This document shows, one piece after another, positions 3,890 through 5,842 of a DNA stretch of 10,319 nucleotides. The position numbers were made by a program, and so were the translations under genes. Each line of letters starts with the position of its first letter. The stretch's first letter is position 1. The stretch comes from an uncultured Alphaproteobacteria bacterium. GTDB taxonomy: Bacteria > Pseudomonadota > Alphaproteobacteria > Paracaedibacterales > CAIULA01. The notes under the pieces were generated by a model, which was given only the letters and a program-made list of their open reading frames with translations, was not told the DNA's origin and made no database searches. The stretch lies in assembly GCA_903905285.1 (NCBI GenBank), contig CAIVFQ010000112.1, positions 1 to 10,319 on the forward strand. Direction: 5' to 3'.

Positions 3890-4027
3890 ATCATAAAAGA
3901 CGACCACAGACACGAAAACATTTTCCTTAAATCTTACACAAAATATCCGCCTCCAGAATTGCCCTTGAATATTTATAAATAGTGTTTACATTGACGGTAT
4001 CAATTTCAAATCAAAAGACTTGTTAAG
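3890..4027. other. Intergenic region before the secreted-protein frame
   Basis: No gene is seen here. It should hold the promoter of the frame starting at 4028. The best weak match is TTGAAT (3965-3970) with TACATT (3987-3992), 16-base spacer. A TTGACG at 3991-3996 has no convincing -10 partner. No clear Shine-Dalgarno sequence precedes ATG 4028. Confidence 0.3.
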
Positions 4028-4159
4028 ATGAAACGGTTTTCTAAATTAGCATTATTACTGGGTTTCGTGAGCGTCGTCGGTCTTCACGGCCAGTCAGTAT
4101 GAGCATCCTCCTCTTCGTCTTCCTCCTACTCATCATCATCTTCAACTGACCGTGATCTC
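4028..4159 (+). pseudogene. Signal-peptide leader with in-frame TGA, 5' part of the 4160-5842 gene
   Basis: From ATG 4028 the frame reads a clear Sec signal peptide: basic MKRFSK, hydrophobic LALLLGFVSVVGL, then HGQSV. TGA follows at codon 25 (4100-4102). After the TGA the same frame continues as Ala, seven Ser, Tyr, five Ser, then TDRDL and the Met at 4160, and runs on to 5842 without interruption. If codon 25 were sense, V-x-A would give a good signal-peptidase I site; Trp is likely, since TGG to TGA is one base change and a V-W-A cleavage site is natural. The segment and the downstream frame therefore look like one secreted-protein gene (about 604 residues) split by a point nonsense change. 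Readthrough or a base-call error cannot be excluded. Confidence 0.75.
4103..4147 (+). repeat. Serine-codon low-complexity tract
   Basis: This is a pyrimidine-rich run of TCN triplets. After Ala 26 it encodes seven Ser, a Tyr, and five Ser, ending before Thr-Asp-Arg. It uses TCC, TCT, TCG and TCA codons, so it is not a pure DNA triplet repeat, and selection for serine is likely. It sits just after the expected signal-peptidase site, as a flexible linker would. Confidence 0.8.
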
Positions 4160-5842
4160 ATGAACGCGACAGGACCAAGTGAGATTAGAACTTGGATGCG
4201 CCACTACTTTCAAGCTGATCAATCGGACTCCCCTTTGCAGGGCCAAAATAGCGATAACAGCCGCTTAACGGATGCCATAGCAGGATATATGCGGAATGCT
4301 GATGGGGGAACTTTGCACCGACTGTTTTATGAACCTGATGTTGAAACTTGGAGAACTCTTTACCAAAGCGTTGCCTCCAAAAGGCAATTTTCCGCCCTTG
4401 ATCTGGTCACATGGTTAGACGAAACTAAAACCGAAATTTTGCGTATCTATGCCACTGATATACAACTGCAAAATAGCAATCGAATGTCTTTTAGATCCGG
4501 AGCCAATGAAAATGCGGATGAACATAATACAGAGAACGGTATCAAACGAGAGTTTGATGGAGAAGCCTATCTTTATATTCCAACCCTACTTGACAATGCG
4601 ATGCAGCAAATTTTTGCAGGCTGCTGGGGCATTTCTGATGAGCCGACGCCTGCCCACGTTATTGATCGTCTGAAAGGGGTTTATGGCCGCGTTGTTTCTG
4701 GGTTTTACCAAGTTGACAGAGATAATGCTGTTTATGGATTAGCAAAATCCTTGGAAGAAAAAAAACAGGGCCCCTTAAGTTCAAAGAAAGGCCACTTCGC
4801 AGTCCTGCAAGAGTGTGCCGCCGCGGTTATATACAACGCTACACCTGATTTTGATTTTACTTCTCTTTCTATGGAGGATATTCTCTCTTTCGGTTTTGAC
4901 GCTGTCCCCAATGAAAAAGATCACGCTACCTTGAAGGAAGAAAACTCCAACAGGGTTTCTAAATTTATAAAAGAGTTTACCGAAAAGACGCAAATAGCAC
5001 TTTCACAATCTTCTTGCGAAACAACTTTTGAGAAAATTAAGTATCAAAATCCCTTGGAAGCCATCTCTTCTAAAAGTGGTGTTTTCCAACAGATTATGTC
5101 CATCCTTTTGTATGGTGAAGACGATGAAGCTAAGATAAATAAATATGTGGCGTCACTGGATTCTAATCAAGACGTGCTTGTAGATAAAAGAGAAGAGCAT
5201 GTACGTATGATGTATGGATATACACAATATGGATGGGGAGAAAATGTTCTTCTAACTCCAGCACAGCTCCACAGAATTATGACACGCCTTGCCACCGATA
5301 AGAAAGTTCCTCTAAAAGATAAAACCCAGATACTCGTAGATGCGCTTTCACACCCAACGACCATTCCCGAGGCAATTTCCCAAGCTCTGTTTGACAGCAT
5401 TGAGCCCAGCATATCTGAAGCCGAAATCATGGGCGTATTTGCTGCTCTGGAAAGTTTTTCTGGTCCATTTAATTATAATAAACAGGATGCTGAAAAGCTT
5501 CAAAGGCTTCGTTTTGTCCCTGCCCAACAGGACAGATTGCTGAACTTGTACGAACAAGCTTTAAGCAAAGAAAAGGATGTTTTGACCAAATGGGAAGACT
5601 TATTCAGATCACCATTTTTTTCTTCAGATAAAGTTCTTTCAAAAGCAGCAGCAGCTTGTCAGATTTTAAAAACTACGAAACCAGAAGCAGTCCGCTCTTT
5701 TTTGTCACGTCATCAAGACAAGTGTGGAAAAAACGACGAAGCAACGAAGCAGTCAGTTGAGGCGATGTTAAAGGAAATTCCAAAGCCGCAACGTTTACGG
5801 AGGGCCTACTTAAGCAGGCCTGGCTTGTTAAAGAAAATTTAA
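4160..5842 (+). CDS. Hypothetical helical protein, body of a probably exported protein
   Basis: I do not recognise this 560-residue protein. It is mostly polar and charged, looks largely helical, has no membrane segment and no enzyme motif I can name, and ends in a basic tail (PKPQRLRRAYLSRPGLLKKI). Six Trp codons are all TGG and composition is even throughout, so it has been under coding constraint until recently. The first Met of the uninterrupted frame is 4160, with only a weak GTGATC upstream as ribosome-binding site. However, the same frame extends back through a Ser-rich linker and a signal peptide to ATG 4028, interrupted only by TGA at 4100-4102. The native product was therefore probably exported. 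Translation from 4160 would give a cytoplasmic form. A role as secreted effector or surface protein is speculation. It follows the exporter operon on the same strand but is separated by about 150 bases and a hairpin. Confidence 0.7.
   Translation: MNATGPSEIRTWMRHYFQADQSDSPLQGQNSDNSRLTDAIAGYMRNADGGTLHRLFYEPDVETWRTLYQSVASKRQFSALDLVTWLDETKTEILRIYATDIQLQNSNRMSFRSGANENADEHNTENGIKREFDGEAYLYIPTLLDNAMQQIFAGCWGISDEPTPAHVIDRLKGVYGRVVSGFYQVDRDNAVYGLAKSLEEKKQGPLSSKKGHFAVLQECAAAVIYNATPDFDFTSLSMEDILSFGFDAVPNEKDHATLKEENSNRVSKFIKEFTEKTQIALSQSSCETTFEKIKYQNPLEAISSKSGVFQQIMSILLYGEDDEAKINKYVASLDSNQDVLVDKREEHVRMMYGYTQYGWGENVLLTPAQLHRIMTRLATDKKVPLKDKTQILVDALSHPTTIPEAISQALFDSIEPSISEAEIMGVFAALESFSGPFNYNKQDAEKLQRLRFVPAQQDRLLNLYEQALSKEKDVLTKWEDLFRSPFFSSDKVLSKAAAACQILKTTKPEAVRSFLSRHQDKCGKNDEATKQSVEAMLKEIPKPQRLRRAYLSRPGLLKKI

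What the first reader, a model, noticed from the sequence alone, without database searches (positions are those of the whole stretch)
4028..5842. Signal peptide and large protein split by one in-frame TGA at the cleavage site
The frame is continuous from ATG 4028 to 5842 except for TGA at 4100-4102. What precedes it is a textbook Sec signal peptide, and what follows is a Ser-rich linker and a 560-residue open frame. No frameshift is needed; one base (probably TGG to TGA) explains it. All 25 Trp codons I count in the intact genes of the window are TGG and none is TGA, so wholesale UGA reassignment is unlikely. Possible outcomes are recent loss of export, UGA readthrough giving a low-level exported form, restart at 4160 giving a cytoplasmic form, or a sequence error. 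A standard annotation starting at 4160 would hide the signal peptide.
Basis: partly seen in the sequence, partly recalled or inferred. Interest (0 to 1): 0.7.

Follow-up and report, generated by a model that had tools for sequence, protein, structure and literature searches.

The report
Exported-protein gene copy cut by stop
One of about nine related secreted-protein genes in a protist-symbiont-like bacterium has an early stop codon between its export tag and its body, most likely an ordinary, recent loss of one gene copy rather than a new way of reading genes.

Summary
In detail: ATG 4028, in-frame TGA at 4100-4102, then an open frame to 5842. The leader belongs to the body: a family profile aligns from 4028 to 5767 across the one TGA, and the same leader starts six paralogues in this genome, in frame with their bodies. 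The Trp guess is not supported: the aligned residue is Lys, Gln or Glu in 15 of 15 leader-bearing rows. Recoding is unlikely: 25 of 25 Trp codons counted are TGG, TGA ends 5 of 38 long open frames examined, and none of 39 tRNAs has a UCA anticodon. RF2 was not found in the draft, but neither were two genes that precede it in three of four relatives looked at, so a gap is likely. This copy also lacks the AAGGA motif that five of six paralogues have, and two other members look broken (C27, C124). Best reading: recent nonsense inactivation, with loss of export, of one copy in a lineage-restricted family without known function. Sequence error and a functional leaderless form remain minor rivals. 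Interest is low to moderate.

The parts
3965..3992 (+). promoter-like block (TTGAAT, 16 bases, TACATT) shared with paralogues; not reported by the consensus scan
   Evidence: alignment of upstream regions; not listed by the promoter scan
4008..4027 (+). stretch before the leader start; lacks the AAGGA motif that five of six paralogues have 6-8 bases before their start
4028..4099 (+). leader, 24 residues, hydrophobic core LALLLGFVSVV; shared by six paralogues; inferred export signal
4100..4102 (+). in-frame TGA that separates leader from body
4103..4159 (+). Ser-rich linker (Ser tract 4106-4144) and junction, no start codon; not seen in the homologues aligned
   Evidence: no tandem array called
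4160..5842 (+). body, 560 codons from ATG 4160; lineage-restricted family without a significant Pfam, NCBIfam or PDB match

Best explanation
The gene is one of about nine members, in this genome, of a lineage-restricted family of leader-bearing proteins; the bacterium is probably a relative of Candidatus Finniella (Holosporales). Six paralogues share with it a Sec-type leader and an upstream block, most with a ribosome-binding motif, followed by a fast-diverging body. In this copy a nonsense codon at the leader-body junction ends translation after 24 residues. Shown: the frame, the stop, the family, the leader in open paralogues, and absence of the ribosome-binding motif. Inferred: the leader directs export; the copy no longer makes the exported protein; the loss is recent, because the remaining 579 codons are open and 47 of 51 residues invariant in the leader-bearing rows are kept; it is ordinary copy-by-copy decay in an expanded family, of which two more members in the same genome look broken.
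For: Leader and body belong together. Paralogues with leader and body in one open frame: C63, C201, C74 (two), C85, and C124 up to its frame change. Database rows with the leader: 9 of 11 besides P0001, and P0013 with a divergent hydrophobic N-terminus. AAGGA is missing here, present in 5 of 6 paralogues, and missing in C124, itself broken. C27 is split by one TAG four codons before its conserved GCWG motif; C124 is split into two frames relative to Finniella P0013. UGA is a stop here: TGA ends 5 of 38 open frames of 150 aa or more in the G000 stretches examined; of 39 tRNAs the Trp one is CCA and none has UCA; no tRNA-Sec over the cut-off. 255 of 5211 possible single changes in the open part make a stop, so absence of further stops bounds neutral change at about 3.5% per site, or about 6% if all changes were transitions. 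The database cluster has 7 member sequences on 4 contigs with a 560-residue representative, and the next row is only 42% identical (only the 8000 best candidates were scored).
Against: Draft genome of 217 contigs; raw reads not seen, so one wrong base is not excluded. No expression data. The body keeps 47 of 51 invariant residues, which a working leaderless form would also show. P0002, the sister gene in Ca. Finniella inopinata (100/99), is also predicted without a leader, which could mean an older shared change; its upstream DNA could not be reached. Four of the five TGA ends are less telling than they look: one is followed at once by TAA, one by another TGA, one by TAA five codons on, and one is the end of broken C124. 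HlyD, LysR and miaA in the window also score no ribosome-binding motif by the same simple test. The background rate of broken genes in this genome was not measured.
Confidence: 0.72

Rival explanations
1. Sequence or assembly error: the real genome has a sense codon and the gene is intact and exported.
For: One codon breaks an otherwise open and conserved frame; draft of 217 contigs; paralogues with similar leaders could confuse an assembler (61 of 72 leader bases equal to C63).
Against: The 560-residue form represents 7 member sequences on 4 contigs, the longest 10341 bases against 10319 here, so more than one assembly seems to hold it (they may share reads and were not seen). The ribosome-binding motif is also missing, which a single error would not explain.
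Confidence: 0.14
2. Functional leaderless form: translation restarts at ATG 4160 and a cytoplasmic protein is kept by selection.
For: 47 of 51 residues invariant in leader-bearing rows are kept; the sister protein P0002 is also predicted without a leader.
Against: No ribosome-binding motif before 4160. Of the members read, all but P0002 and P0012 show a hydrophobic N-terminus (computed for twelve of them, read by eye for the database rows). P0002 keeps only 29 of 46 invariant residues and has a long branch, which looks more like decay. P0002 starts at the residue aligned with body residue 44, so the two leaderless starts do not coincide.
Confidence: 0.08
3. Low-level readthrough of UGA gives a small amount of exported protein.
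For: A single stop near the 5' end leaves everything downstream open.
Against: No UCA tRNA among 39 and no tRNA-Sec over the cut-off; the next base is G, not the leaky UGAC context (recalled); C27 carries TAG, so no common recoding signal.
Confidence: 0.04
4. UGA is reassigned in this bacterium (RF2 lost).
For: prfB is not found in G000 although an RF1-type gene is, while 30 of 38 genomes in the same search have prfB over the cut-off. In G003, one of four relatives looked at, prfB has other neighbours, so the gap argument is not airtight.
Against: Two genes that precede prfB in G001, G002 and G004 were not found in G000 either, so the block is probably a gap; TGA ends other open frames; 25 of 25 Trp codons counted are TGG; tRNA-Trp is CCA. 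Odds raised from 0.01 to 0.02 on checking, because of G003.
Confidence: 0.02

Closest known systems
Nonsense-interrupted paralogues in expanded surface or secreted gene families of host-bound bacteria (recalled, general)
   Same: one in-frame stop, rest of frame open, open paralogues in the same genome, other members apparently broken independently
   Different: this family has no described function that I found and no Pfam or NCBIfam model
Candidatus Finniella inopinata proteins P0002 and P0013 (hypothetical protein; alpha/beta hydrolase family protein)
   Same: P0002 is the sister of the window's body (support 100/99); P0013 is the one-piece relative of paralogue C124
   Different: P0002 is annotated without a leader and keeps only 29 of 46 invariant residues; P0013 is predicted in one piece, 1098 aa
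UGA-recoded genomes (Hodgkinia, Mycoplasma) and selenoproteins (recalled)
   Same: in-frame UGA within an open frame
   Different: no UCA tRNA, no tRNA-Sec over cut-off, TGA ends other frames

Membership tests
Lineage-restricted leader-bearing family (defined here by alignments A1, A3, A4) | body homologous over the conserved region with the GCWGISDEP and LKGVYGRVVSG motifs | tested here: met
Lineage-restricted leader-bearing family (defined here by alignments A1, A3, A4) | family leader translated in frame with the body | tested here: not met
   leader present at 4028-4099 but cut off by TGA 4100-4102
Pseudogene (inactivated copy) | disabling change in a frame that relatives keep open | tested here: met
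Pseudogene (inactivated copy) | no functional product | not testable with these tools
   needs proteomics or transcript data
Pseudogene (inactivated copy) | relaxed constraint on the body | tested here: inconclusive
   47 of 51 columns identical in nine leader-bearing rows are kept, 61 of 71 at 8 of 9 or more; those rows themselves keep 57 of 58-62 in leave-one-out
UGA reassigned to Trp | in-frame UGA at Trp positions of conserved genes | tested here: not met
   25 TGG and 0 TGA in eight window ORFs; aligned residue at 4100 is K/Q/E in relatives, not W
UGA reassigned to Trp | tRNA with UCA anticodon | tested here: not met
   39 of 39 tRNA places read, none UCA; draft genome
UGA reassigned to Trp | RF2 lost | tested here: inconclusive
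   prfB not found, but two genes that precede it in three of four relatives are not found either
Selenoprotein | tRNA-Sec in the genome | tested here: not met
   13 matches, none over the gathering score, at the places of ordinary tRNAs

The most novel reading that the evidence does not exclude
The shared 5' block (promoter-like region, ribosome-binding site, leader) is an exchangeable cassette in front of diverging bodies. Stop-cut copies without a ribosome-binding motif, such as this one, are silent stores that can be switched on by recombination with an expressed 5' block: a slow variation system in a protist symbiont. Hints: the first 14 leader codons are DNA-identical between this copy and C63 although the bodies are only 42% identical, and C74b joins the leader to a body without most of the N-terminal domain.
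Probability: 0.06. Interest if true: 0.6.

Novelty: new member of a known kind. Interest (0 to 1): 0.22.

Why it matters
It makes it likely that the stop marks a decaying copy (or, less likely, an error) rather than recoding, and shows how an annotation starting at 4160 hides it. The by-product is a lineage-restricted family of leader-bearing proteins with diverging bodies, for which I found no description; these are candidates for host interaction in Finniella-like protist symbionts (inference).

Tried and rejected
RF2 loss: prfB was not found, which would have made UGA recoding serious. I take it as an assembly gap because two genes that precede prfB in G001, G002 and G004 were not found either. 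Against this, in G003 prfB has other neighbours. The names lgt and methyltransferase for those genes were recognised by eye from their sequences, not by a family search of them. The methyltransferase search used one protein from G001 and its empty answer is weak by itself; the LGT family search matched 9 of 14 named control genomes.

tRNA-Sec: only sub-threshold matches at ordinary tRNAs. Named-organism loci in genome contigs: two scans, no relative confirmed, so the DNA upstream of Finniella P0002 was not seen. Structure prediction: asked eight times, always 'machine busy', so there is no fold evidence. Pfam, NCBIfam and PDB searches of the body gave nothing significant (in one search five Pfam models matched one member each at E 0.008-0.1). 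Tandem repeat in the Ser tract: none called. Literature: three full-text searches, of which I saw listings and abstract starts; one review seen by term passages only (PMC11909080). None of what I saw describes this family; that is the whole basis for calling it undescribed.

Full report
Observation. The window holds ATG 4028, a 24-codon leader, TGA at 4100-4102, and an open frame to TAA 5842. From 4103 there are 579 sense codons; the first possible start is ATG 4160. Eight window ORFs hold 25 TGG and no in-frame TGA.

The family. The body (4160-5842) has no significant Pfam or NCBIfam match and no PDB relative by profile. In its own genome (G000, 217 contigs) relatives lie on contigs C63, C124, C201, C74 (two genes), C85, C169 and C27: nine genes with this one (C169 and C27 by partial profile matches, E 6e-11 and 8e-10). 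Among 38 genomes searched with the protein, G000 and the same-genus G001 match; with the family profile, 3 of 42 (G000, G001, G002). A scan of 5.8 billion proteins gave 12 rows, the window's own included, with only the 8000 best candidates scored; the profile search added one, P0013. The two rows with a named organism, P0002 and P0013, are from Candidatus Finniella inopinata, a symbiont of the cercozoan Viridiraptor invadens (host from passages of PMC11909080).

Leader and body are one gene. The leader alone hits the starts of C63, C201, C74a, C85 and, weakly, C124; C74b shares it by alignment. In each it runs in frame into the body. Profile A3, which holds the window's body but not its leader, aligns the window from 4028 to 5767 with one TGA inside. 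Of the 11 database rows besides P0001 in alignment A4, nine carry the leader; P0002 and P0012 are predicted without it. P0013 has a divergent but hydrophobic N-terminus. More distant members (C27, C169, three of G001, one of G002) also have hydrophobic stretches near their N-termini; for C169 the start is unsure.

What was at the stop. At the aligned position the six paralogues have K,Q,Q,Q,Q,Q and the nine leader-bearing rows K,K,E,E,Q,Q,Q,Q,Q; none has Trp. P0008 is nearly the same protein as C124 and P0011 nearly C201, so the rows are not all independent, and the region after the leader is variable, so alignment there is less sure. The Ser tract (4106-4144) is in none of the aligned homologues.

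Other signs of decay. Five of six paralogues have AAGGA 6-8 bases before their start; the window copy has none before 4028 or 4160, and C124, itself broken, has none either. HlyD, LysR and miaA in the window also score none, so the motif is not general; the point is its absence relative to paralogues. Against decay of the body: it keeps 47 of 51 columns identical in nine leader-bearing rows, and 61 of 71 at eight of nine or more. Those rows keep 57 of 58-62 in leave-one-out, P0012 32 of 40, P0002 29 of 46. Not all of the nine rows are sound: P0008 is the first ORF of broken C124, and the tail of P0010 looks out of frame beside P0011. With 255 of 5211 single changes leading to a stop, the absence of further stops bounds neutral change to about 61 substitutions (3.5% per site), about 6% if all changes were transitions, or about 20 substitutions if indels come at one per ten substitutions, an assumed rate. 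So the loss would be recent.

Other broken members. C27 has a single TAG four codons before its conserved GCWG motif; the piece after it matches the 642-residue G002 relative (E 5e-19), the piece before it only weakly (E 0.018). C124 is split into two ORFs in different frames that both match Finniella P0013, and lacks about 195 of its residues. So 3 of 9 members look interrupted. The genome-wide rate of broken genes was not measured, so I claim no excess.

Recoding. G000 shows one class-I release factor, of the RF1 type by its PxT motif (recalled), and no RF2. Of 38 genomes in the prfB search, 30 have it over the cut-off. In G001, G002 and G004 prfB follows two genes that I read by eye as lgt and a methyltransferase; in G003 it has other neighbours. 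In G000 neither gene was found, so the block is probably unassembled. In the G000 stretches examined, TGA ends 5 of 38 open frames of 150 aa or more: the window's 2143-2910 (followed at once by TAA), one each on C85 (next stop 94 codons on), C27 (followed by another TGA) and C169 (TAA five codons on), and the first ORF of broken C124. All 39 tRNA places have ordinary anticodons; Trp is CCA. No tRNA-Sec passed the cut-off. UGA is therefore taken as a stop.

Sequence error. The 560-residue protein stands for 7 member sequences on 4 contigs, the longest 10341 bases. That points to more than one assembly with the stop, though they may share reads. I could not see those contigs.

Sister gene. In a 17-row tree P0001 and P0002 are sisters (100/99), with a long P0002 branch (0.83 against 0.21). 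P0002's predicted start aligns with body residue 44, beyond ATG 4160. Whether its gene has an upstream leader is not known.

Verdict. A recently stop-cut copy of a leader-bearing gene in a lineage-restricted family: ordinary as an event; the family is the more useful find. No structure was obtained because the service was busy at each of eight attempts.

Noticed in passing
L022:1745-3271 (G000:C27): Family member with hydrophobic N-terminus split by a single in-frame TAG four codons before the conserved GCWG motif.
   Followed up: partly
L018:228-2923 (G000:C124): Family member whose C-terminal prolyl-oligopeptidase-like domain lies in a second, overlapping frame; the one-piece relative is P0013 of Ca. 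Finniella inopinata.
   Followed up: partly
G000 (whole draft): prfB and two genes that precede it in three of four relatives looked at were not found in a draft called 100% complete; probably one unassembled block.
   Followed up: partly
G005, G024, G031: Three further relatives at 91-100% completeness show only one match to the prfB model, at an RF1-like score; gap or loss not examined.
   Followed up: no
P0010: The tail of this database protein looks out of frame beside its near relative P0011; possibly another broken member elsewhere.
   Followed up: no
L021:1515-2525 (G000:C85): Paralogue ends in a low-complexity (DSRDSK)n tail.
   Followed up: no
window 3948-4069: Upstream block and first 14 leader codons are far more alike between this copy and C63 than the bodies are (69 of 80 upstream bases, 42 of 42 bases in the first 14 codons).
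   Followed up: partly
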